A DNA stretch of 64,000 nt from Petasospora fabianii (Eukaryota > Ascomycota > Saccharomycetes > Phaffomycetales > Wickerhamomycetaceae), in NCBI GenBank assembly GCA_022641835.1, contig CP048716.1, forward strand, positions 1,488,001 to 1,552,000. Direction: 5' to 3'. The number at the start of each line of letters is the position of its first letter. The first letter of the stretch is position 1. Of the stretch, positions 1 to 62,166 are shown one piece after another. A program made the position numbers and the translations under genes. The notes beneath the pieces were generated by a model. The model made no database searches, was not told the origin of the DNA, and saw nothing but the letters and a program-made list of their open reading frames with translations.

Positions 1-1944
1 TAATGCGTTGTGATTGGTTCGTGTGTATCAAGTCAGGAAGTTATCGGGAATGCTGTGTCTGCTGCTGTCTTTACGACCATAGCAGTACTGATTGGGTAGC
101 GAGCTATATCAGTATAAAGCCGATTATGGTACTTGCTACGACGATCTGTTTGTATTTTCGTCATTCAATGTTATACCTATGGTACTCACAAGAGCCCAGT
201 AACGATCTGGTTGAAGGTGGGGCTGATCACGATTGTGAAGAGGTGAGGATCCCGACGACGTCCTCTTGTCCGTATCTTGCCTCTTCGGATCCCTCAAGAG
301 GGATGCGGCTAGCTGTAGGGCAATGCATGATTCAACTTGCCCCTCAGGGCGGGTTGTGATATTTGTGCTAGCGACGATGACTGAGACAAATCTGCTCAGC
401 GCCTGTTTCCTTTGTGCAGAGCAGTCAGGGCACGCAAGCTTCTCAAAAGGGTGAGGTGGATGCCTGCCCTACAGCCCTGACATGTGCTATCAGGGATTTT
501 TACATTCTGTTTCCTCTTATCGTCTGCCAAGAGCTCCAACCAGATGATTACGATAATCTATCGGAGTGGCATGGCCATCGGGCATCGCTCGAATCAGTAG
601 TGCGTCTCGTCAATTGCCCCTTCTGGTGATTTCCCCGCTGAAATTCCGATCTATCGAAACAGGTATGCTTCAATTCTCCACCAGGGACGCTCGCTTTCCC
701 TGTTGTGTGTCATCACAGACACCCGTGACTGGATCTACCCTCGCATTTCAACCTGCTGGCCATCCGATCCCTTCTGGGCCACGATAAGAGAATAGCTGCT
801 TTCTCCACAACGCAGATCATACACCACACACGACACACTATCCACCAACACGCCACGCACCACACTTCAGTGCCATATACAGGACGGTGGCTTCCCTTGC
901 ACGTGGGAGCCCTCTGCCACTATAACTCTCTTTAGATCTGTGGCTAGTTCTGTCCACGACTGGCCCCTGCTAACTACGACGATGAGGATGTTTAGCGCGG
1001 GCTGCTGTGGGGGTATAACTTCGCTGCTGTTAGCTACTGCGGTCTGCTGCTCCTAAATGCATGTTGCTGCATGAAGCAGTAGGATCCAGTGGCTGAGGTG
1101 AACAACAAAATATCTCTCTCAGGAACCAGGAGGAAACTAGGGGAAAACACACGGGTGCCCAGAGTCCGTTGTTGCGAAATCCAGCTCTGTCTTGGCCTGA
1201 AGTGTTATGAAAATTTCCTTTATCAGTGCTATAGTAGAATAGAATGCCAATCTCAACTAGTTTATGCCGTACCATCCGTACCACGGGTCAATGGCGTACC
1301 ATCGATCTCTGCATCGCGTCTAACCCCCCACAGCAGCCACCACAACCACCACAACCACAAAGACTATAGCACATCTCCACAGTCGCTGCAGCGGCAGAAT
1401 GGAGTCAAAGTGGCCCAGTTCAAAACCCGAGACACCTCATACGCAGAAATTGGGCTTGCAGGGAGATTTTCGGTTCTCGAAGCTGCAGATCGGTATTCCA
1501 GAAGTCAAACAGATACAGAGATAGCTCCTCTTTCCCTCTAAGATAGTCCCCCTCCCAGGGTTGTCATTGGCCAGGAGAACACCCGGTCATGCCAACCCGC
1601 CAGCTAGTAGCCCTCATATCCGGAAGATAACCTACCTCTTGCTGCTCGATTGCGAATACTGCTGTGATCACCGCTGTACTGCGTTCGAGAGTTGCAGTTT
1701 TCGCTTGCCTCGGGCCCTCAAAATCGGAATCAACAACATGCACCCTAAGGGGACTCGGGTCCCTCATGTTGGAGCTCCCCACCCCATCAAATTCCTCTTC
1801 CTGTTATTCCTTTGCTATTTCTTCAAAAATTTGGGTATATAAGGACCGACCATCTCCCATCTTCTCGTCTCATCTTTCTCATATCGTCTTTATCATCATC
1901 AACACTCAACAGCCTCACCAGCTTTTAGAAACTATACTACAACA
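1..1944. other. Gene-free stretch upstream of secreted protein
   Basis: No open frame here is convincing. The longest (1089-1541, + strand) has irregular composition and no recognisable domain. The last 100-200 bases are probably the promoter and leader of the gene at 1945: a TATA box lies at 1836-1842, and an AGGGG stress-element core lies at 1748-1752. The rest shows no RNA gene, repeat or transposon that I can recognise. The window starts inside this stretch, so a gene cut off further left cannot be excluded. Confidence 0.5.
1836..1842 (+). promoter_or_regulatory. TATA box (TATATAA)
   Basis: TATATAA lies 103 bases before the ATG at 1945. The same spacing of about 100 bases is seen for the TATA boxes of the SDR gene at 48139 and the Ser/Thr-rich gene ending at 13340. 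The leader between TATA and ATG is rich in C, T and A and ends in a favourable ACAACA before ATG, as in highly expressed yeast genes. Confidence 0.65.
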
Positions 1945-2562
1945 ATGAAGTTCTCCACTGTTTTTGCTACCTTTGCTATCTTCGCAGCCTCAGTTGTTGC
2001 TGCTCCACTCGCTGCTCCAGAAGCCATTGCTCTCGCTGACCCAGAGGCTAAGGCTGATGCCGTTGCACTCGCTGCTCCACAGGCTTTGGCCCTTGCTGCT
2101 CCACGTGCACTCCCAGCTGAAGCTGGCGACTTGACCGTTGTCAACAACGCCATTGCCAACTTGACCACTATCATTAACGACCTTACTGGTGTCTTGTCCG
2201 GTACTACCCTTCCATCCGAGCTCCTCACCGAGATTGTCAACACTGTTGTTACTCTCGTTGGTGGTATCGTTGATGCTCTCGGTAAGGCTACTGGTCTCTC
2301 CGAACTCACTGATGCTTTGAACGGTCTTGTCGGTGAGGCTATTGACACTTTGGAAGGTCTCTTGAAGACCAGTGGATTGGACGACTTGGTTGACAAGGAG
2401 TTGAAGTCTGTTATCCACCTTGTTACTACCTTGTTGCAGGAGTTGCTCACCACTTTGACCAACGTTCTCTCTGCCTTGTTGTCTTTGAACTTGATTGGTG
2501 TCGTCACCTCCTTGCTTGGTGGTCTTGCTACCATCCTCGGCAGCTTGCTCTCTGCTTTGTAA
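1945..2562 (+). CDS. Secreted protein with X-Ala/X-Pro dipeptide leader
   Basis: A 205-residue secreted protein that I do not recognise. Residues 1-19 form a clear signal peptide (MKFS start, hydrophobic core, Val-Val-Ala end). Residues 20-57 are 19 consecutive dipeptides ending in Ala or Pro (AP LA AP EA IA LA DP EA and so on, to RA LP). This pattern is known from pro-regions trimmed by dipeptidyl aminopeptidase, such as Yarrowia alkaline protease. The rest (about 62-205) lacks cysteine, is rich in Leu, Val, Thr and Gly, and has repeated Leu-Leu steps that suggest amphipathic helices. A sequon lies at Asn72. There is no GPI signal or obvious membrane anchor, although the C terminus is very hydrophobic. 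Codon choice (GCT, GGT, TTG, ACC) is strongly biased, suggesting high expression. It could be a secreted surface-active or wall-associated protein; this is inference only. Confidence 0.85.
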   Translation: MKFSTVFATFAIFAASVVAAPLAAPEAIALADPEAKADAVALAAPQALALAAPRALPAEAGDLTVVNNAIANLTTIINDLTGVLSGTTLPSELLTEIVNTVVTLVGGIVDALGKATGLSELTDALNGLVGEAIDTLEGLLKTSGLDDLVDKELKSVIHLVTTLLQELLTTLTNVLSALLSLNLIGVVTSLLGGLATILGSLLSAL

Positions 2563-11563: not shown

Positions 11564-12673
11564 ATGCACATACAGTTCACTCGTTTTGCTCTCGCTGCTC
11601 TTGCTGCTAAGATTGTCTCTGCCGTTGGTACCCCAGGCGCTCTTCCATGGGCCAATGCCAACCCACACGCCGCTGCCGCTGCTGACGCCTTTGCCGAAGC
11701 CTATGCTGAGGCCACTGCTATTGCCCACCCAGACCCACAAGCCTATGCTCTTGCTGCCTCCGCAGATGATTGTGCTACTATCGCTTGTCACGCTGCTTGT
11801 GGTATGCTTATCATCTATGGTTCTGATTGTTCTGAGAACGACGACAACTCATACGCTGGTCCATACAATACCACCTGTTTGTGTTCCGACGGCTCTGACT
11901 TCTTGACTTATTACCCTACATGTATGGACTGTGGATGGACTTTGTGGAAGTACTACGGTGGTTATGTCTCTTCTGCACTTGCTGCCTGTGGCACTTTGTC
12001 CACCGAGCCAACTGGTACCTCTAGATGTTCCACCACTTTGTCCGACTCTTACACCATTGACACCGGTCTTCAGGCTTGTGAGTACACTGGGGGCTGTACA
12101 ACGGATGATGATACTACAACTACCGAGGCGGAGATCACTACCTCGGCTGCTGAGACCGCTACAAGTGCTGATGCTACTACAGAGGAGTTTAGCACCGCTA
12201 TGACCTCTGCGGTTGCTGCAGGGACCACAAATGGTGCTGAAACCAGCTCCACTGAAGCCACTACTTTGGCTGTAACTTCTAGGTCCAGTAATACCGAGTT
12301 GAACACCTCTGCCGCTACCGCTTCCACTGCTTCTTCTTCTTCTCAGGACGCTACTTCAGAGGCTACTGCTGCTAAAATTACTTCAGCTGCCTCCTCCGAG
12401 GCTGACTCTGAGACTACTTCCGCTGATGTCTCCTTTGAACCTATAGCTGAGTCTGCTTCTACCTCTGCTGATACCTCCTCTGGGGCTACCTTTGTCGTTT
12501 CCTCTGCAAAATCCTCAGCTGTAGATATCACCGCTGCAGATTCCACCGCTGCAGAGATCACCTCCTCTGCCGCTGAGTCTACTGCTGCTACCATCTCCAC
12601 TTACTCTGGTCAGGCCGCTAAGGTTGCCTCTGCCGGTTTAGTTGGTGCCGTTGTCGGTTTGCTCCTCATGTGA
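11564..12673 (+). CDS. GPI-anchored cysteine-rich cell-wall protein
   Basis: A 369-residue predicted wall mannoprotein. The signal peptide is about 1-20. Residues 23-64 are 21 consecutive X-Ala/X-Pro dipeptides (TP GA LP WA NA NP and so on, to QA YA LA), the same leader type as the gene at 1945. A Cys-rich module follows, with 12 cysteines at 70, 75, 79, 89, 105, 107, 120, 123, 142, 155, 172 and 178. It includes TTCLCSDGSDFLTYYPTCMD, a CLC...FL...C-x-x-C arrangement seen in fungal surface proteins. Residues about 180-345 form a Ser/Thr/Ala stalk for O-mannosylation. The C terminus is a GPI signal: small residues near Ser348-Gly349, a short spacer and a hydrophobic tail ending GLLLM. I do not know its specific function; adhesion or wall structure is possible. 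Confidence 0.88.
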   Translation: MHIQFTRFALAALAAKIVSAVGTPGALPWANANPHAAAAADAFAEAYAEATAIAHPDPQAYALAASADDCATIACHAACGMLIIYGSDCSENDDNSYAGPYNTTCLCSDGSDFLTYYPTCMDCGWTLWKYYGGYVSSALAACGTLSTEPTGTSRCSTTLSDSYTIDTGLQACEYTGGCTTDDDTTTTEAEITTSAAETATSADATTEEFSTAMTSAVAAGTTNGAETSSTEATTLAVTSRSSNTELNTSAATASTASSSSQDATSEATAAKITSAASSEADSETTSADVSFEPIAESASTSADTSSGATFVVSSAKSSAVDITAADSTAAEITSSAAESTAATISTYSGQAAKVASAGLVGAVVGLLLM

Positions 12674-13339
12674 GTCTAGTGTGAATTGATCACTTTCTTT
12701 TTGAACTTATCTCGTCCTCAAAATTTCTTGGGAATGAGTCTTATTATGTAACTTTAACGATATTCAATGAACCTATGTTCAATTACGTACAATGGGTTAT
12801 ATACCAGGGGATCTTTTGCCACTCCTACATGAGGCTTCTAGGGTTCACTCCGCAAAACGGACAGAAATAGATCTACAATTCATCGTGATTAAGAAAACGT
12901 CCATAAGAAACCAGATTAAAATGATTGTGGTGTATAGCGCGCATGAGAAAGACCCATAATAGATAAAAGATACCCTAATTAATCACAAAAAAGAATGAAA
13001 GGAAGAATGAATGAATGAATGAATGAATGAATGGGATGAAGCAGCAAGAACAAAACAAAGGAAATCACAAAAGATCAAAAGAAAACACATTCACATGAGC
13101 GAAACCAGTCATTCATGCCATAAGACAAAGAGAAGAACAAGTGTAGCCATTACCAATAACAAAACCAGATACAGTTAGCAAAAGAAACAACACATTTCCG
13201 AGTCCAATAAAAAAACAGTAGCCCACTAAGCAGATGCAAAAAAAACACAGCAGACAATGTATTCGTTCCCCTACCCCAGAAAAACCAGAAAAAAGAAGCA
13301 CACCAAACCAAGGGGAAACAAGTTTTAATTGGGTAACAT
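12674..13339. other. Intergenic between convergent genes, AT-rich
   Basis: Lies between the 3' ends of the GPI-protein gene and the Ser/Thr-rich gene. It is A-rich and contains a tetranucleotide microsatellite at 13005-13032. The minus-strand frames at 13113-13365 are hydrophobic translations of A-rich DNA and are not convincing genes. Confidence 0.45.
13005..13032. repeat. (GAAT)7 microsatellite
   Basis: Seven perfect tandem GAAT units, flanked by imperfect units (AAGAATGAAAG before, GGGATGAAG after). The repeat lies between two converging genes, where length changes are unlikely to affect coding. Confidence 0.9.
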
Positions 13340-14245
13340 TTAGTTATACGTAACTTTACTTCCATTTCTCTTCAATCTAAGTGATTCTCTCTTTCTGCTA
13401 CTTGTAGCGTTGTACAATTCTGGAAGTACAATATCTTGTTTAATCTGGTGTTCGAGATGTTGTTGTGCCTCCAACTGTTCATGCATGAATGAAGGTTGTA
13501 ATTGTGACTCTGATGATGCCGGCGGCGTATTTGGAACTTCAAAGGAGAAGTAGGACGCGCTTGGAGATTCTGTTGGTGTACGAAGGTCCCACATTGGCTG
13601 TTGGAACGCCGAGGCGGTCTGGATAGGTGGTGTACTGGAGAATTTAGATGACAGGTTAACAGTTGGGAAGCCGTTGAGGGAGGAGACACTGTTTGTTCTT
13701 GTGGCGGTGACTTGGTGTTGAGCGTAGTTGAGTGGAGGCTGTGCTGTAGTGGAGGCTGAAGAGACAGAGGAGGAACGACAAAGCTGGATGAGCTTTTGTC
13801 TGATAATCACGAGAGAGTAGTTGTTAACCTCGATACCGATATCGATACCGGAGTCAACAGCACGCTTGAGGGCATCCTTGGATACCTTGTTGAGGATTCC
13901 TGATGGTGGATTTGACGCGTTGAAAGGGGTGATCTGTGGGTTTGTTTGGTATGTCTGGTATGTCTCGCACAGCATAGATTCAAATGGCTCGGAAAGTTTA
14001 TAATGGGATGCGAACTGGGAGTAACTAAAGTCGTTGCCACCGGCCTGTGACAAGTTTGACACAGAGGAGGCGATGGAGGAGACGGATGCCGTTCTGCCGT
14101 AACGTGGTGGTTGTGGCCAGTCATATGAACCGGTCTGCTCTGTAGGGGTGGAGACAGGAGTGATATCGTCCATGGCAACGTCGCCGTCCTCAAGGTGATG
14201 TTCGTTCATTATTTGGATGTGCAATGGGAACTTGTTCATGAGCAT
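13340..14245 (-). CDS. Ser/Thr-rich yeast protein of unknown function
   Basis: A 301-residue protein if it starts at 14245. The frame is open to an ATG at 14428, but a TATAAAG box on this strand at 14345-14351 lies 100 bases before 14245, so the first 61 codons are probably leader. ATGs at 14239 and 14209 are alternatives. The likely folded part is FESMLCETYQTYQTNPQITP through GILNKVSKDALKRAVDSGIDIGIEVNNYSLVIIRQKLIQLC. It is surrounded by Ser/Thr/Gln-rich disordered sequence with Ser-Val-Ser-Ser repeats and Thr-Pro sites. The C terminus is basic (SSRKRESLRLKRNGSK). It faintly resembles the uncharacterised YMR206W/YNR014W family, which I cannot confirm. Two MluI boxes lie further upstream. Confidence 0.7.
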   Translation of the reverse strand: MLMNKFPLHIQIMNEHHLEDGDVAMDDITPVSTPTEQTGSYDWPQPPRYGRTASVSSIASSVSNLSQAGGNDFSYSQFASHYKLSEPFESMLCETYQTYQTNPQITPFNASNPPSGILNKVSKDALKRAVDSGIDIGIEVNNYSLVIIRQKLIQLCRSSSVSSASTTAQPPLNYAQHQVTATRTNSVSSLNGFPTVNLSSKFSSTPPIQTASAFQQPMWDLRTPTESPSASYFSFEVPNTPPASSESQLQPSFMHEQLEAQQHLEHQIKQDIVLPELYNATSSRKRESLRLKRNGSKVTYN

Positions 14246-16210
14246 CTCTGTAGTTGTGTGGGTTGCGGAGGTGCGGTTGGGTATAAAGTGTAAAGGAACG
14301 ATGGCAAGGTCGAAGACCAAGAACGAGTTGGGTCCCGAACGCGTCTTTATAAACGGGGCCAAAATGGCAAGTGCGGGCCGATCGTCTTGCCAACCTTGCC
14401 AACCTGGGGGGTGTAGCTGCAAGCACATGCGGGATGAAATGCGTAGTCAACAAGCAGGTGCTGGGATTTAACAAGTACCGCTGCAGCAACACTTGTAATT
14501 GAGTCCGCTCAGTTGCCCCTTTCGGCAAGGTAATTGCCCCTGGGAGATGAGACGCGTCGCGTTTTTCGCGTTTTTGGGGAGGCGAAAAGCGCATTAGAAA
14601 ATGAGACGCGTCAGGGGCGGTCAAGCGTTCTCCTATTTTTGGAGGAAGACCCTGAAGCCGATTACTTCTGGACATGGTGGCGCTTGCTGCGAGCCTTCAT
14701 GAGCCGTGACAGCTCTAAGTTCCATCTCATCATTCTCCATAGTAGTGAGTCCTTTCCCCCTGTCGATGTCTGGTTTCTTCATGGGGTCCCCTTCCAAACG
14801 TCCCAAATACCCAATTGGGAAACAACTTAGACCAGACTAGATATGCCTGTCTGATGGGCCAGATTAGCATTCGGGATCAGCGGCCGAGCAGCAGAACGGT
14901 GCATAGTTTCTGGAATATTTGGCACCTGACACATGGACAACCAGAGAAACATTTCTAGTTACACAGCCAATGCTGTTAGTGCTACCAGCGCAGTGCAGTG
15001 CCTATGCGAATTTTTATGCTTTGCTTCAAAGCATACCCCTGTCTCCAGCGGATTCCGGGTCATTGTGATGCCTCATGGCACACACAGAGGAAAATATACC
15101 TCAATTATAGCGATCAAGTGTTGTACTATGAGTGGTTACAGGTACCATAGAGTTTACATGGTGTGTAAAGAGAGTATATTAGCCCGTGATGGAGTGGCCC
15201 GGTAAAGGCTCGTATCTCTGATTGTAAGTCAAGTGGGGCCGCCTCCACCCGTTTACCGAGGCGGGACCCAACTCCACCACGTATATCAATGGGAATCGGA
15301 ACGCAAACGGAACATAATGGCGCTCAAATCTTAGTTGCAGACAATGCCAGAAGATCCGATGCGGGCCATAAATGCCCAATCAACGGTGCGGCTATCCGCC
15401 TTTCCATGGGCTGACCTAGGTACCCGAGATACCCTTTGTCTCCCACACCCAGGTGCAAACGTTGTATCCTCAACGACACGCCTTGAGAATCCTATCGAAT
15501 ATTTTTAGGCTTGTCGTCGAACCACCGAAGTAAGCGCTTGGCGTGTGTACCTGATTGTTTGTTTCCTGAGGCTTCTACCCTTTAATTAAAGATGCATCCT
15601 ACATAGGCAAAACTCACAGAACTTTGAAGAGACTTAGATGACACACACACGCTGTTGCAGATTCGAGGCACGCACATGTGCATTTGACTGGCCCTCTGTA
15701 AATTGCCTAACAGCCGCTATGCCTTCTATCTATGAACAGCACTGACACACAAAACCATTAGTGGACATGAAATGACGATCAGAGAAGCCATAGAAGAATC
15801 TCTCGGTTCCGGTGTGTGCCTGTGTGTATCAGAGCCATGCTAAATCCAGGTGCAGGGCTTCAATGGCTCCTGAAAATGATCGTCCGCCATATGGGCATAT
15901 GACGCTAAATCATTCGACTCAGATGGGGACCGGCTGGAGAGACTACATGGGACTTTAAGTGTGTTGTGGCTGTGTATAAAGTGTGTGACACTAAGGCTTA
16001 GCGTGTGGAGTACACACTAGACTCCAAAGTAACGCCTGTGCCCTGTGACACAGCGCTTTTAGAGTTTCCAAAGTACATAGCATGAGCATCACTTACAGCT
16101 GGCTGATCACTAGTGAGACTCCTGTTGTTCAAAAGCCAACATTGGATATGTAACATCTTGGAACACACCACTCCTTTCTCTGTAAGTAGTAGCACGATAC
16201 TTCACTGGTA
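14246..16210. other. Gene-free stretch with two MluI cell-cycle boxes
   Basis: Nearly 2 kb without a convincing gene. The left end is the promoter of the gene at 13340-14245, with TATAAAG on the minus strand at 14345-14351 and two ACGCGT boxes at 14552-14557 and 14606-14611. Between about 14.7 and 16.2 kb I see no open frame with a recognisable product, no tRNA arms and no repeat array. A non-coding RNA or an origin could be here but cannot be read by eye. Confidence 0.4.
14552..14611. promoter_or_regulatory. Two MluI cell-cycle boxes in a repeated 12-mer
   Basis: ATGAGACGCGTC occurs twice, with ACGCGT at 14552-14557 and 14606-14611. ACGCGT is the binding core of the Mbp1/Swi6 factor MBF. 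The pair lies roughly 310-360 bases before the proposed start of the minus-strand gene at 14245, suggesting G1/S expression of that gene. Confidence 0.5.
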
Positions 16211-33321: not shown

Positions 33322-34954
33322 TTAAGCTTCTAGCTCGTCCGCAAATTCAGAGAGCTCGCGTGCAGTTACATCAAGTGTATCAGATGATACAATCTCAGGG
33401 GACGGTTTCTCCTCAGTTTCCTCGTGGTCCTGTTCCGCCTCAGACTTTATAGCTTTCTCCTCATCTTCAACAAATTCCTCGACCTCTTCTTCCACATCCG
33501 CTTCGATAGGACCAGTGTATCGATCCTCTATTTCCTTGAGCCTTTCTAATTCGTCATCATCCCTCTGCAGCTCCTTATTTTGTTCGTTTAACGTCTTAGA
33601 ATTGGCCTCAGCTATCTGCATCTCCTTGATCTTTCTGATCAGTGGAAGGTTATCCCATGGATCGTTGAAACTGAACGCTCCAGCAGAGTCGAACACACGT
33701 TCTGGCTTTACATGACGCTTCTCGAACTCCCATGGGAACACAGATGGGATATTCGGGTCCGGGTACTCGGTGTCAGTCTCCTCATCATGGGATTGATAAT
33801 CATCGGCTGTATCCCACTCATTATCGTAGTGAAGATCAGCTGGGAAGTAAGCAGCTTCTGGCTTACCATCCTTTGGTGGCTCTTCATATGCAGGTTTCCA
33901 CTGCTGATCATCCTGTGAGACAGTCTTAAAGTTTTCGTAAGACTCTGGATTGAGGAGGACATCTTGATCTTCGTGGTTGTACTCCTGGAAAGGCTCTGAA
34001 TCGTTCTCGATTTCTTCATGAAAGGCAGCATCAGGCTCAGGGATAGCCATGGGTTCAGATTCGATATCTGTTTCGTCCTTGCCTGTGGTGGATGTATCAG
34101 ATTGATATTGTCTTGGAACAATCCCATGAATTGTTTTCCTGATATCGAGATCAGTACCAAAGTAATCGACATACTTTCCCCACCACTTGTCTCTCAATCC
34201 ACCTTGATTCTGTGGGTCATTCCATGGCTTCGTTGCACCAATGTAGTGTACCGCTTTAACGTCGTCACTGAAGAAGTCATAGGCAGGGTCGTACTGGTAC
34301 TGGCCCGAGGGAGTAACATTGTACAGGAAAGGCAAACGGATCCAGCCGTCTGGCTTCCCCACATTAAAGAACTGATTGAGAAGACCTTGATCAGCACCAT
34401 CAAAGGAACAGTCTTTCTCCTGTGATCTTTCGAGGATCTTAGAAAATGTGCCTAGATCTGGCTTGATCACAAGGACACCAGAGTTGAAAATGTCCGGCCA
34501 GCCAGAATCAGGAGAGGCTGCAATCTGATCAGGACGGAGCTTGATTTCGAAGAGTTCATCGAGGGGTTTGAGAGGCAGGGTGTCGGCATCGAGGTAGACG
34601 ACCTGATCGTACTGTGTCAAGGCAAATAGATTGGCTTTAGAGAAGGTTGGCTTAAGCTCTGGACGACCAAGTAGTGTCAGCTGAGGGGTATTTTTAGCGT
34701 GTATAAGGGATGTCTCGATTATCACGTCGTACACTTCCTTCAATAACTTTTGTTAGTACTTAGACCAGGTGTGATTTACTGGATTGACAACATACCTCGA
34801 GCAGTGCCAGTTCATAAGGCGTGAGTGCTGTGGCAAGGAGGACAACGATTTCTGTGTTGGACGGGAGCCCAAGCTCCTTGAGAGCCTTCCCAAGAACGAG
34901 TGCCCCGGGGAGGTAAGATGCGGAGAAGAGTAGGGTAGCAAAGGCCCTGGCCAT
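33322..34954 (-). CDS. GLG1: Glycogenin, glycogen primer glucosyltransferase (two exons)
   Basis: Exons are 34796-34954 and 33322-34737, giving 524 residues. The 58-base intron has donor GTATGT, branch TACTAAC (34746-34752) and acceptor AAG before GAAGTG; the nearer AG is only a few bases after the branch and is unlikely. Exon 1 gives MARAFATLLFSASYLPGALV and ends YELALLE, and exon 2 starts EVYDVIIETS. The GT8 fold follows, with FALTQYDQVVYLDADTLPL (the DxD metal site), WPDIFNSGVLVIKPD and GADQGLLNQFF. The HYIGATKPW histidine segment is present. A long acidic, disordered C-terminal half ends in SEFADELEA and probably includes the glycogen-synthase-binding tail. It self-glucosylates on tyrosine to start glycogen. 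Confidence 0.93.
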
Positions 34955-45515: not shown

Positions 45516-46799
45516 ATGACATCCACCCAGATGTTATTTGTAAAGACTTTGTTGCAAAGTCTACTACTCATTGTGGGATTTCGCCTCATGAAACTATCCA
45601 CTGCCAGTAGTAGCACACCACAGTACAGCAAAAATCATGGGAGTAACCTCACCATCGCCCATGATTCAGTCTTAGAAGACCAAGAGCAGGAATATCCCAG
45701 CATTTCTCAAGAATTATATGAATATCTCTCCACTACGGCGGAGATGGCTAAAATCGCCTATTGTACCGTGAATCCCTTCTTTAGCGTTGGTGAGCTTAAG
45801 GATGAGTGTGAACCTATGAGATTTTGTCGAGAGACTGAAAACACACGTATTGTTGGAGTCTTTAGACCTAACTGGTGGAGTGGGAGTATAAGTGGTACCG
45901 TTGCTGTGGTTGTGAAAGAGGATACTAAGGAGGTGTTTGTTAACTATAGAGGGACTTGTGCACCGGGGGATTGGGTAACTGATTTCAATGCCCTACAGAG
46001 CAAATATATGCCTGTGATGGCTCCCGGTGATGGCACTGGCGTGAGTAAAGCTATGAGAGACGTTGTTAACGAGTATAATGGTTTTGTTGGTTTGCATGCC
46101 GGGAACGGTACGGAGGTGGAGACAGCAAGGTTCGGTAAACTACTGGCAGATAAGGTTTCGGAAAAACTGGAAGCGTTGGGCCAGGGGGACATTTGTGCAA
46201 AGTGTAAGGTACATATGGGTGTGTATCTTGCACATGCTCATATTTTCCCCAAAGTTTTCCAAGGTGTAAAGCCATTTGTTGAACAGGGTTACAAGCTAAC
46301 AGTCACTGGCCATTCGTTGGGTGGTGGCTTTGCTCAGTTGGCCGGCGCCGAATTTCAATACCTTGGGTATATGCCACGAACTGTATCATATGGACAGTTA
46401 CGGGTGGGGAATCCGGAGACCAATGAATGGACAGACATGCTGTTCCATACGAGGCAACTAGCAAACAAGCTCAAAGGTCAACATGTGCCACCCTATGGTT
46501 CATTCACACGAGTTTATCAAACCACTGACCTAGTGCCGCTGCTGCCACCATTTAAAAAGTATACGCATGCTGGGATGGCTATTGCCATTGAACAGATTAC
46601 CCTACCACAGGACAAAGGTGTTGTTGAGTTCCGAGGTGCGTCAAACAATTGGAAGAATGAGGGGATTGAGCTTGATGATTACCGAGGTGATTGGAGAGCG
46701 CTATTTGTGCTATATCAGCACCTTAATTACTTTACGAGACTGTCATGGCCTTGTAACGATGCTGAGTTGTTTGCTCCAGAGGATGCGTGGGTGTGGTGA
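45516..46799 (+). CDS. Secreted class 3 lipase
   Basis: A 427-residue alpha/beta hydrolase. Residues about 6-22 (MLFVKTLLQSLLLIVGF) form a signal peptide or anchor. The nucleophile elbow is GHSLGGG with Ser267; Asp338 in TTDLVPLLPP and His351 in YTHAGM complete the triad. FVNYRGTCAPGDWVTDFNA (141-159) is the strand and lid region usual in class 3 lipases. Sequons at Asn44 (NLT) and Asn197 (NGT) and several cysteines fit a secreted glycoprotein. The likely role is hydrolysis of external triacylglycerols or other esters; substrate is not fixed by sequence. It lacks the X-Ala/X-Pro leader of the other two secreted proteins here. Confidence 0.9.
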   Translation: MTSTQMLFVKTLLQSLLLIVGFRLMKLSTASSSTPQYSKNHGSNLTIAHDSVLEDQEQEYPSISQELYEYLSTTAEMAKIAYCTVNPFFSVGELKDECEPMRFCRETENTRIVGVFRPNWWSGSISGTVAVVVKEDTKEVFVNYRGTCAPGDWVTDFNALQSKYMPVMAPGDGTGVSKAMRDVVNEYNGFVGLHAGNGTEVETARFGKLLADKVSEKLEALGQGDICAKCKVHMGVYLAHAHIFPKVFQGVKPFVEQGYKLTVTGHSLGGGFAQLAGAEFQYLGYMPRTVSYGQLRVGNPETNEWTDMLFHTRQLANKLKGQHVPPYGSFTRVYQTTDLVPLLPPFKKYTHAGMAIAIEQITLPQDKGVVEFRGASNNWKNEGIELDDYRGDWRALFVLYQHLNYFTRLSWPCNDAELFAPEDAWVW

Positions 46800-57132: not shown

Positions 57133-58167
57133 TCATTTTGGAGATGCACCTGCGGACTCAGCCTTCGACGAGTCAACATCAAGTACCGCAAGTTTGGCAG
57201 CAATATCCTCCACGGACTCATCCTTTTTCGCTGAAGCAAGTGGGGTGTCTTCCAATGCGTCTTGAACATCTTTAACTATGTTCTTCAGGACTTCTTCACC
57301 TTCTTCGTCAGCCTTACCCTTGACCTTTATATGGGCATCTTCAACCAGCGTTTCGAGCTCTTCAGTCCAGCCGAGCTCTTCACACAACTTCTCGGCGAAG
57401 GTATCCGTTGATTGCTCAAAAACTAAATCTTTCTTTCTTGGAGTCACAAAATCACCAACAGTCTCCATATTCACCAATACCCTATGTTGATGACTAGGAA
57501 CCTCACTTGGTAACGAGGCAAAGGGGTATACCGTCAAACTCGTCCCCGCTGTTATAGTCAGATACTCTGCATCATCATACGTTAGATCTTCTGCGTCGTC
57601 ATCCCATAAGTCAAAAAATCTCGCAGGTAAGCCCTCTCCAAAGAAAACAATATCTGGCTTGACGAGTCCATCACAACCCTTCTTCTCACATCTCGGTTGT
57701 TCTTGCTTGAACACCGCCTTCTTGTACTTCTCCCCATCATATTTGGCATGGCATTTGATACAGTGGTTCTCAGCAAACGATCCATGTGCCTCAACGATGT
57801 ATTCACCAGAGATTCCAGCGACACGCTCTAATGTATCAATGTTCTGGGTGTACACTCTTTTTAGCTTTCCCTTATCCTCCATCAACTTCATGAGGAGGTG
57901 GAACTTTGTTGGTGCAAACTGACCAGGATATAGTTCCCTGGCAAGGTGAGAGAATGGTTTTGGGTTCTTCTTGAAGAAATCGATATCAAATACAGCTTCA
58001 GCATATGGCAAGTCGAGCTTTTGGAGATTGTGATAAAGACCTGTTTCAGGAGATCGGAAATCAGGGATTCCAGCAGATGTGGAGATCCCAGCACCGACGA
58101 AAAAGATGACTTTAACGTCTTTGGTAAGGATGTCTGCCAGGCGTCTGATATCTGGTCTGGTGGTCAT
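57133..58167 (-). CDS. HST2: Cytosolic sirtuin Hst2, tandem copy 1
   Basis: A 344-residue class I sirtuin (yeast Hst2 is 357) that removes acetyl groups from histone H4 K16 and other targets using NAD. It has FFVGAGISTSAGIPDFRSPE (22-41), TQNID (108-112) and the catalytic histidine 128 in EAHGSF. Zinc cysteines are 136, 139, 160 and 165, and PDIVFFGEGLP follows. After the core comes an acidic, Lys-rich tail (VEDAHIKVKGKADEEGEEVL...), as in yeast Hst2, where the tail regulates trimer form and export. The ATG at 58167 is the family-like start. The frame is open for another 61 codons upstream, with a second ATG inside. Confidence 0.93.
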   Translation of the reverse strand: MTTRPDIRRLADILTKDVKVIFFVGAGISTSAGIPDFRSPETGLYHNLQKLDLPYAEAVFDIDFFKKNPKPFSHLARELYPGQFAPTKFHLLMKLMEDKGKLKRVYTQNIDTLERVAGISGEYIVEAHGSFAENHCIKCHAKYDGEKYKKAVFKQEQPRCEKKGCDGLVKPDIVFFGEGLPARFFDLWDDDAEDLTYDDAEYLTITAGTSLTVYPFASLPSEVPSHQHRVLVNMETVGDFVTPRKKDLVFEQSTDTFAEKLCEELGWTEELETLVEDAHIKVKGKADEEGEEVLKNIVKDVQDALEDTPLASAKKDESVEDIAAKLAVLDVDSSKAESAGASPK

Positions 58168-58406
58168 TGAGATGCGGCCTTCGGGTCCTGAGTTAGCGTA
58201 TAGAAGAGTACTGAAAGGTGGGTATGAACTCCGAAACTTTGTGTGATGGAGCATCGCAAGCGATGTGATCGCGCAAGCTTGAAGAGCAGACTGAGGGTTA
58301 AGGGCTCCAGTCGCTGACAGTGTGGGAATTTCTGTAACTATACTAGACAATGAGGGTGGGTGATGTTTTCAATATGCTCGTTCATTAAATCATTACAAAT
58401 GGTCTT

Positions 58407-59294
58407 CTATAAACCTTCCTCCCTGGCTTTATGCACCTTCTCCAGACCCTCCAGGTACAACTCATGCAGATCATCACTCCAACCCAGTTTCTCACAGATT
58501 TGCTCCGCAAATACATCAGCATCTTTTAAAAACACGAGATCCTTATGTCTTGGAAACCTAAAACTGCCAACTTTCTCCGTGTTTATCAACACTCTCCATT
58601 GATGCTCGGGCACACCGGCAGGCAATGAACTAAACGGTGCCACACTCAACGAAGTCCCAGCAGTGATAGTCACAACTTCAGGACTTGTTCCTGAAATTTC
58701 CAAAAGATCCTTTTTCCACAGATCGAATCTCTTGGGTATATCCTCTCCGTAAAACACAATATCTGGCTTGACGTACCCATCACACCGCGCCTTGACACAA
58801 CGTGGTGTCTCATGGAGCTTAAACACAGCTTCTCTGTACTTGTCAGGATCAAACTTTGCATGACATTTGGCACAATGGTGTGAGGCAAAGGAGCCGTGGG
58901 CCTCAACAAGAAGTTTCGGAGAGATTCCAACCACGCGTTCAAGTGTATCAATGTTTTGCGTGTAGACTCTCCTTAGCTGTTTCCTCTTCTCAATCAGTTT
59001 CATGAAACAGTGGAACTTTGTTGGGGCGAACTGACCTGGATAGAGTTCCTTGGCAAGTTGGAGGAAAGGTTCCGGTTCCTCATGGAAGAATTCCAAGTCC
59101 AATATGGCTTCTGGGTAGGGCAGATTGTACTTTTCGAGGTTGTGGTAGAGTCCAGTGTCTGGGGACCTGAAGTCCGGGATCCCTGCAGCAGTGGAGATGC
59201 CTGCGCCGACGAAAAAGATCAACTTAGTTCGCCTGCTCTGTAGCAACCTAGTGAAGGTCTCGAGATCATCACTCGCAGACTGCGCTGCTGTCAT
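58407..59294 (-). CDS. Sirtuin Hst2 paralogue, tandem copy 2
   Basis: A 295-residue sirtuin on the same strand as copy 1, 239 bases upstream of it. It has FFVGAGISTAAGIPDFRSPD (27-46), TQNID (112-116), catalytic His133 and zinc cysteines 141, 144, 166 and 171. The catalytic core is closely similar to copy 1 along its whole length, including NLPYPEAILDLEFF and YPGQFAPTKFH. It lacks the long acidic C-terminal tail and stops at EKVHKAREEGL. All catalytic residues are intact, so it should be active. It diverges from GLC8 by 164 bases. Gene duplication with tail loss is inferred. Confidence 0.92.
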   Translation of the reverse strand: MTAAQSASDDLETFTRLLQSRRTKLIFFVGAGISTAAGIPDFRSPDTGLYHNLEKYNLPYPEAILDLEFFHEEPEPFLQLAKELYPGQFAPTKFHCFMKLIEKRKQLRRVYTQNIDTLERVVGISPKLLVEAHGSFASHHCAKCHAKFDPDKYREAVFKLHETPRCVKARCDGYVKPDIVFYGEDIPKRFDLWKKDLLEISGTSPEVVTITAGTSLSVAPFSSLPAGVPEHQWRVLINTEKVGSFRFPRHKDLVFLKDADVFAEQICEKLGWSDDLHELYLEGLEKVHKAREEGL

Positions 59295-61128: not shown

Positions 61129-62166
61129 TCAATGTAGTCCACTTAAAACTTCGCTGACATCCATCAGCCTCCCAACGTTAACAAAATCCATTGGGTTGTA
61201 CTCCTCGCTAATGCTCATAGCCCTCGTACTCATGCTCTCTCTCAAAAAGTCAACTATGCCGACACACTGATCATCCAAATCTCCATCGTTTTCATCATCA
61301 TTATCATCATCACCCTCATCATCTTCGCTCTCATCGAACACGCTGGTGTCATAACGATTTTTAGCCATGTACTGAATATTATCGTTGGCGGCAGCAACAG
61401 CTACCGCTGCCGCTGCAACACCACCCCGGCGTGGTGTCAACGGCCTCGACGCAACATCAAGGTCAATCATCGGGTATGATGGCGGTGTCAACCCATCTGA
61501 ACTCTTTGCATGCTTCAAAGTAGCACCTCTAGGACGAAATCCTCGTGTCCTCACCACCGGTGTGGACTTGTACTGGGGTATTCCTGGATGTGAGGGCTTA
61601 GTAGCGGCATCAGCAACAAGCTCGCGGTCTTGCATTAGCCGCCCAGTTGCAAACTTGACAGATTTCGCTTTTGGCGATACACCATTAATATAGTCATTAT
61701 CCTGTCCTGACATGGCAGAGTTTGCTAAAGATCCGTGGCCACACAGAGATGAAGCTCCTGTTGATGGGTTATGAGCGTCGTTAGTGAAGATAGACTCGTT
61801 GGAGGATAAAGAAAGAGCCATGGAGCGTCTGTGACCAAACGCTCCCCGTCTTGCTCTTGGAAGCACGGGTGAGCGTGTTGGTGACGATGGCCAAGTAGTT
61901 GACGATCCAACTGAGCCTCTTGGTGTCACTGGAGAGACATCATTTGACATGCTTGATGTTGGTGTGGTGGGAGTCAGGGGAAGAGACTCCTTAGAGTTTG
62001 GGAAGCTGTATCTCGATAGTCTATCATAGACACCACCCTGTTGCTGGCGACTCGATGATAACTTGTGGCAGAGTGGCTTATCCTGTGCGTTGAAAGACTC
62101 GAATATGCCAACACTTTTGTCTTTTGGAGAGACAGAGTCAGCATACTTGTCCTCGTTAATTATCAT
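61129..62166 (-). CDS. Disordered Ser/Pro-rich protein of unknown function
   Basis: A 345-residue, mostly disordered protein. It has many Ser-Pro and Thr-Pro sites (SPTRSPVLPRARRGAFGHRR, LTPTTPTS, VSPVTPRGS), which suggests phosphorylation by cyclin-dependent or MAP kinases. An acidic run (SEDDEGDDDNDDENDGDLDD, about 285-304) precedes a possible short folded end (VGIVDFLRESMSTRAMSI then PMDFVNVGRLMDVSEVLSGL). Ala repeats (GGVAAAAVAVAAAND) lie before it. No family was recognised. The ATG at 62166 is used; the frame reaches three codons further only through a TTG. Confidence 0.65.
   Translation of the reverse strand: MIINEDKYADSVSPKDKSVGIFESFNAQDKPLCHKLSSSRQQQGGVYDRLSRYSFPNSKESLPLTPTTPTSSMSNDVSPVTPRGSVGSSTTWPSSPTRSPVLPRARRGAFGHRRSMALSLSSNESIFTNDAHNPSTGASSLCGHGSLANSAMSGQDNDYINGVSPKAKSVKFATGRLMQDRELVADAATKPSHPGIPQYKSTPVVRTRGFRPRGATLKHAKSSDGLTPPSYPMIDLDVASRPLTPRRGGVAAAAVAVAAANDNIQYMAKNRYDTSVFDESEDDEGDDDNDDENDGDLDDQCVGIVDFLRESMSTRAMSISEEYNPMDFVNVGRLMDVSEVLSGLH

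What the first reader, a model, noticed from the sequence alone, without database searches (positions are those of the whole stretch)
11630..11755. Same dipeptide leader (21 units) on an unrelated GPI protein
Residues 23-64 of the GPI-anchored protein form 21 consecutive X-Ala/X-Pro pairs, longer than the run at 1945. The two proteins share nothing else: one is Cys-free and Leu-rich, the other Cys-rich with a GPI anchor. Two unrelated surface proteins within 10 kb carrying the same leader type suggests a general secretion-maturation module in this species, perhaps affecting export, folding or timing of release. This is the best candidate here for a less described system.
Basis: partly seen in the sequence, partly recalled or inferred. 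Interest (0 to 1): 0.75.

Follow-up and report, generated by a model that had tools for sequence, protein, structure and literature searches.

The report
Dipeptide-trimmed leader on yeast wall protein
A yeast cell-surface protein begins, right after its export signal, with 21 residue pairs that each end in alanine or proline, which looks like a removable leader that a known type of enzyme clips off two residues at a time; the type is known from other secreted proteins, though this one is unusually long.

Summary
Codons 23-64 of the 369-aa ORF at 11564-12673 are 21 consecutive X-Ala/X-Pro pairs. The only comparable run in six frames of the window is the 20-pair run at 1996-2115; all other runs are at most 6 pairs, also the maximum in 60 Markov windows. 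The DNA is not a simple repeat: 20 of 21 hexamers differ. The two leaders resemble each other no more than permuted leaders do; the mature parts are unrelated. Both leaders start at or next to a plausible signal-peptidase site and end by a phase slip. Neither protein has a dibasic site. Best explanation: a propeptide removed stepwise by a Ste13/DPP IV-type dipeptidyl aminopeptidase, as reported for Yarrowia lipolytica AEP and (title seen only) promelittin. A Y. lipolytica genome scan listed 54 proteins with a related motif, so a shared secretion-maturation module is a known idea. Unusual here are the length, the lack of a Kex2-type pro-region and the GPI-type cargo. No genome is held, so the proteome scan and peptidase count could not be done. 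Removal of the leader is inferred, not shown.

The parts
11564..12673 (+). ORF, 369 aa: signal peptide, dipeptide leader, 12-Cys domain, Ser/Thr-rich stalk, hydrophobic C-terminal tail (GPI-signal-like)
   Evidence: no Pfam family at E <= 0.1 and no PDB relative at E <= 10
11564..11629 (+). signal peptide region, residues 1-22 (cut after A20 or G22 is permitted by the -3,-1 rule; both are in phase with the run)
   Evidence: rule-based; no SignalP available
11630..11755 (+). 21 X-Ala/X-Pro pairs (residues 23-64), inferred dipeptidyl-aminopeptidase leader
11756..12118 (+). inferred start of the mature protein (A-S-A-D-D-C...) and the Cys-rich domain
   Evidence: sequence; Cys positions; single-sequence AF2 model unusable, pLDDT 32.9
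12119..12673 (+). Ser/Thr-rich stalk (44% S/T over residues 181-345) and hydrophobic C-terminal tail
1945..2562 (+). second protein with the same leader type, 205 aa, Cys-free, Leu-rich, predicted helical
2002..2115 (+). its leader: 19 X-Ala/X-Pro pairs starting directly at the likely signal-peptidase site after A19 (20 pairs if V18-A19, from 1996, is counted)

Best explanation
The run is a removable propeptide. Signal peptidase exposes it, and a Ste13/DPP IV-type dipeptidyl aminopeptidase in the secretory pathway then removes it two residues at a time. Removal stops where the alternation slips by one residue (LA|AS-AD-DC here, LP|AE-AG-DL in the partner), which puts Ser or Glu where Ala or Pro is needed. 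The mature GPI-type wall protein would then start at A65. Shown here: the run, its phase, its non-repetitive DNA and its end. Inferred: the enzyme, the removal and the mature N-terminus. Most likely role, also inferred: a neutral, easily trimmed spacer behind the signal peptide.
For: Run far outside chance. 16 different X codons and 20 of 21 different hexamers, so the constraint lies on the second residue of each pair and not on a DNA repeat. 0 of 40 X positions in the two leaders is Pro, which DPP IV-type enzymes do not tolerate at P1' (that rule is recalled). Cuts after A20 or G22, and after A19 in the partner, are in phase with the runs. Same phase-slip ending in both proteins. No KK/KR/RK/RR in either protein, so no Kex2-type dibasic step is expected. 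Only 2 Ser/Thr in the leader against 44% in the stalk, which argues against an O-mannosylated spacer. Precedent: AEP matures by signal peptidase, then dipeptidyl aminopeptidase, then the Kex2-like XPR6 (PMC6311201); LIP2 has four X-Ala/X-Pro dipeptides described as substrates of such an enzyme (PMC4651352). STE13 is widespread: a survey of 250 fungal secretomes reports that only 15 of the available catalogues lacked at least one of KEX1, KEX2 and STE13 (PMC6339444).
Against: If signal peptidase cuts after A20, the first pair is Val-Gly, a poor substrate for this enzyme class (recalled); the reading then needs a cut after G22 or slow X-Gly removal. Among rule-permitted cut sites only 3 of 6 in this protein and 2 of 4 in the partner are in phase, so phase alone is weak evidence. 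Absence of Pro at X means little if Pro is rare there anyway. Ste13 can be incomplete even on short leaders: with an alpha-factor leader in P. pastoris, 73.5-84% of three secreted LPMOs kept the EAEA (PMC5596469, passages), so clearing 21 pairs is not a given. No peptidase gene was found among the 28 window ORFs given to Pfam, and the genome could not be searched. No homologue was available to show that the pattern is conserved.
Confidence: 0.8

Rival explanations
1. The alternation is a permanent Ala/Pro-rich N-terminal spacer or helix of the mature protein and is not removed.
For: Processing was not observed; Ala-rich stretches can form helices; Val-Gly may block a dipeptidase if the cut is after A20.
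Against: A spacer or helix does not need a strict two-residue phase. Pro scattered through the run is unfavourable for a helix, and X is widely variable. The same phase occurs behind the signal peptide of an unrelated protein.
Confidence: 0.1
2. Chance or low-complexity DNA expansion of an Ala codon repeat.
For: Nucleotide match at lag 6 is raised (0.47), as any X-Ala pattern gives; in the partner only 14 of 19 hexamers are distinct and GCTCCA occurs 4 times.
Against: 20 of 21 hexamers are distinct here; Ala is coded by GCC (10) and GCT (6); shuffle and Markov controls do not reach it.
Confidence: 0.03
3. A special case of the best explanation, not an alternative to it: the leader is trimmed, and its main role is timing. 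About 21 successive cuts delay exposure of the mature N-terminus, so that folding or wall attachment occurs late.
For: Unusual length (21, and 19-20 in the partner) against four in LIP2 and a 2-10 search range in the Y. lipolytica scan.
Against: No kinetic or functional data; two loci only.
Confidence: 0.15

Closest known systems
Y. lipolytica AEP (XPR2) and LIP2 prepro leaders (PMC6311201, PMC5959983, PMC4651352; passages and sections seen)
   Same: X-Ala/X-Pro stretch after a signal peptide; dipeptidyl aminopeptidase removal reported for AEP
   Different: Those leaders are shorter (four pairs in LIP2; the scan motif allowed 2-10) and are followed by a pro-region ending in Lys-Arg for XPR6/Kex2; here 21 pairs, no dibasic site, and a GPI-type wall protein instead of an enzyme
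Promelittin pro-part (only the title of Kreil 1980 seen, in a reference list)
   Same: Stepwise cleavage of a pro-part by dipeptidyl peptidase IV (title); that this directly yields the mature N-terminus is recalled
   Different: Insect venom peptide; a different cargo and lineage
Alpha-pheromone and KEP precursors with STE13 signatures (PMC6339444, PMC9769878; passages seen)
   Same: Repeated XA/XP dipeptides removed by STE13
   Different: There the dipeptides follow Kex2 sites between repeated peptides, not the signal peptide

Membership tests
Y. lipolytica AEP/LIP2-type prepro leader (MK-x7-15-(x,A/P)2-10-x10-120-KR) | signal peptide followed by X-Ala/X-Pro pairs | tested here: met
   (signal peptide judged by hydrophobic core and the -3,-1 rule only)
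Y. lipolytica AEP/LIP2-type prepro leader (MK-x7-15-(x,A/P)2-10-x10-120-KR) | MK start and 2-10 pairs | tested here: not met
   this protein starts MH and has 21 pairs; the partner starts MK and has 19-20 pairs
Y. lipolytica AEP/LIP2-type prepro leader (MK-x7-15-(x,A/P)2-10-x10-120-KR) | pro-region ending in KR (Kex2-like site) | tested here: not met
   no KK/KR/RK/RR in either protein
Propeptides removed by DPP IV/Ste13-type dipeptidyl aminopeptidases (general mechanism) | uninterrupted X-Ala/X-Pro pairs ending where the second residue is no longer Ala/Pro | tested here: met
   the possible first pair Val-Gly is an exception if the cut is after A20
Propeptides removed by DPP IV/Ste13-type dipeptidyl aminopeptidases (general mechanism) | removal by the enzyme, mature N-terminus shown | not testable with these tools
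   needs protein chemistry
Propeptides removed by DPP IV/Ste13-type dipeptidyl aminopeptidases (general mechanism) | the species has the peptidase | not testable with these tools
   no genome held
GPI-anchored cell-wall protein | signal peptide, Ser/Thr-rich stalk, uncharged hydrophobic C-terminal tail | tested here: met
   (44% S/T over residues 181-345; last 16 residues uncharged, mean hydropathy 2.33)
GPI-anchored cell-wall protein | anchor attachment and wall location | not testable with these tools
   no GPI predictor was run and there are no protein data

The most novel reading that the evidence does not exclude
In this yeast, long (about 20-pair) dipeptide leaders ending in a phase-slip stop are a standing module on cell-surface proteins. 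They are trimmed by a Ste13-type enzyme without any Kex2 step, and their length sets how late the mature N-terminus appears.
Probability: 0.15. Interest if true: 0.55.

Novelty: new member of a known kind. Interest (0 to 1): 0.35.

Why it matters
It shows the dipeptide-leader design on a GPI-type wall protein, in a yeast whose codon choice, by recalled comparison, does not look like Yarrowia, at about twice the upper limit of the Y. lipolytica scan motif and with no dibasic site. If many surface proteins of this species have it, surveys limited to 2-10 pairs plus KR would miss them, and the role of leader length could be tested directly.

Tried and rejected
Whole-genome scan: not possible.

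Homologues: the GPI-type protein has none in Pfam at E <= 0.1 or PDB at E <= 10, and its Cys-rich part none in prokaryote genome contigs (117 pattern matches, none confirmed). The partner has four Pfam rows, all under their curated cut-offs; one is MF_alpha_N on residues 1-28 at E 0.098, not taken as homology. Viral contigs searched with the neighbouring VAC8-like protein, to place the organism, gave 5 pattern matches, none confirmed.

Structures: AF2 without an alignment failed for the Cys-rich part (pLDDT 32.9), so no fold search was made with it. For the partner's mature part (pLDDT 67.5, all-helical) Foldseek found 0 of 603 matches with E <= 0.001; the top row was AfMP4p at E 0.096 and TM-score 0.26, not interpretable.

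CUG recoding: rejected. In the VAC8 alignment, 8 CTG codons face Leu 5 times, Ile twice and Lys once, never Ser or Ala (read by eye). The two leader genes contain no CTG at all.

Homology of the two leaders: not supported (277 of 2,000 permuted pairs score as high), although leaders of about 40 residues with one pattern cannot exclude it.

Phase with the signal peptide as strong proof: dropped, because only 3 of 6 and 2 of 4 permitted cuts are in phase.

Literature: nine searches were answered. None of the listings or passages that I saw described a GPI wall protein with such a leader, but the library is open-access only, and I saw listings, passages and sections of nine papers, none read whole. 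The supplementary list of the 54 Y. lipolytica proteins was not seen, so it may include wall proteins.

Full report
What is there. The ORF at 11564-12673 (+) encodes 369 residues. It reads as a signal peptide (M1-A20 or M1-G22), a run of 21 X-Ala/X-Pro pairs (residues 23-64, bases 11630-11755), a part with 12 cysteines (C70-C178), a Ser/Thr-rich stalk (44% S/T over residues 181-345) and an uncharged hydrophobic tail (mean hydropathy of the last 16 residues 2.33). That is the layout of a GPI wall protein; no GPI or signal-peptide predictor was available. The protein has no Pfam match at E <= 0.1 and no PDB match at E <= 10.

It is not chance. Whole-protein shuffles never exceed 10 pairs in 20,000; shuffles confined to residues 21-70 never exceed 15 in 100,000. 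In all six frames of the window, runs of four or more pairs number 30 (4 pairs), 11 (5), 1 (6), 1 (20) and 1 (21); 60 Markov-resampled windows never exceed 6. The two long runs are therefore outliers, and both sit behind a signal-peptide-like start. It is not a DNA repeat either: 20 of 21 hexamers differ, Ala is coded 10 times by GCC and 6 times by GCT, and X is filled by 16 different codons. The partner's leader is somewhat more repetitive (14 of 19 hexamers distinct) and less extreme against local shuffles (18 reached, 19 observed).

The partner. The ORF at 1945-2562 has 19 pairs directly after the likely signal-peptidase site (20 with V18-A19). Its mature part is Cys-free, predicted helical (pLDDT 67.5) and scores no better against the Cys-rich protein than shuffles (600 of 2,000 as high). 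The leaders themselves are not more alike than permuted leaders of the same pattern (277 of 2,000). Independent recruitment and divergence under the same constraint both fit.

How both runs end. In both proteins the alternation ends by slipping one residue...YA LA | AS AD DC and ...RA LP | AE AG DL. Alanine stays frequent but leaves the second position. A dipeptidyl aminopeptidase that needs Ala or Pro there would stop at that point. With two proteins this is suggestive, not statistical.

Mechanism. Signal peptidase, then a Ste13-type dipeptidyl aminopeptidase working along the pairs, then a stop at A65. No dibasic site exists in either protein, so no Kex2-type step is expected. The weak points are a possible first pair Val-Gly if the cut is after A20, the fact that only 3 of 6 rule-permitted cut sites here and 2 of 4 in the partner are in phase, and the known incompleteness of Ste13 on a short EAEA leader in P. 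pastoris (PMC5596469, passages).

What is known. For Y. lipolytica AEP the order signal peptidase, dipeptidyl aminopeptidase, XPR6 is reported, with the dipeptidase placed in the late Golgi (PMC6311201; passages and part 1 of 2 of section 6); two other papers place the trimming of the X-A/X-P stretch in the ER (PMC9252082 passages; PMC5959983 figure legend), so the compartment is not agreed among the papers that I saw. LIP2 has four X-Ala/X-Pro dipeptides (PMC4651352, passage). A scan of the Y. lipolytica genome for MK-x7-15-(x,A/P)2-10-x10-120-KR found 54 proteins, credited there to unpublished work, 38 kept after SignalP (PMC5959983, section 12). STE13 signatures also occur after Kex2 sites in pheromone and other precursors (PMC6339444 and PMC9769878, passages). 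PMC10095220 (passages) also describes the dipeptide step for AEP. The present case thus belongs to a known kind of leader. It differs in length, in lacking the KR pro-region, and in its cargo.

Organism. A budding-yeast-type gene set: a protein matching Vacuolar protein 8 in the PDB, VTC, a Ulp1-type protease, Med1, a PRP39-like protein, RNA12 and others. GC is 46.4%. CTG is read as Leu. The preference for AGA, CCA and TTG does not look like Yarrowia; that comparison is recalled. The species was not identified, and neither its dipeptidyl aminopeptidases nor its proteome could be examined.

Scanned for the peptidase. 28 window ORFs were given to Pfam: 8 (E <= 0.1) and 10 each (E <= 1e-5). They comprise 26 of the 31 ORFs that I listed for codon usage plus the ORFs at 13340-14428 and 61129-62166. 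Of the 31, the VAC8-like ORF went to PDB only (apart from the viral-contig search), and those at 33322, 49389, 58407 and 59321 were not scanned. None of the 28 showed a dipeptidyl peptidase family. Genes with introns may have been missed or read in part.

Verdict. Real, strongly non-random, and best read as a long dipeptidyl-aminopeptidase leader. A new example of a known kind, with unusual length and cargo.

Noticed in passing
2116-2562 (+): Mature part of the partner protein is predicted all-helical (five helices, pLDDT 67.5); the top Foldseek row was AfMP4p bound to arachidonic acid (an Aspergillus wall protein, as recalled), but at E 0.096 and TM-score 0.26 this is only a lead.
   Followed up: partly
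57133-58254 and 58407-59294 (-): Two adjacent ORFs on the same strand look like tandem Sir2-type deacetylase paralogues; the first matches Pfam SIR2, the second was not scanned and resembles it by eye.
   Followed up: no
45516-46799 (+): Class 3 lipase with an N-terminal hydrophobic segment but no long dipeptide run, so the leader is not on every putative secretory protein of the window.
   Followed up: partly
window-wide: CTG is absent from 6 of 31 listed ORFs, among them both leader genes and the eIF4A-like and thioredoxin-like ORFs. This may mean that CTG is avoided in highly expressed genes although it is read as Leu; expression was not tested.
   Followed up: partly
about 13005-13035 (+): Short (AATG)n-type simple repeat downstream of the GPI-protein gene.
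   Followed up: no
1932-2534 (-): A 200-aa ORF runs antisense to nearly the whole partner gene; most likely a by-product of its biased codon use.
   Followed up: no
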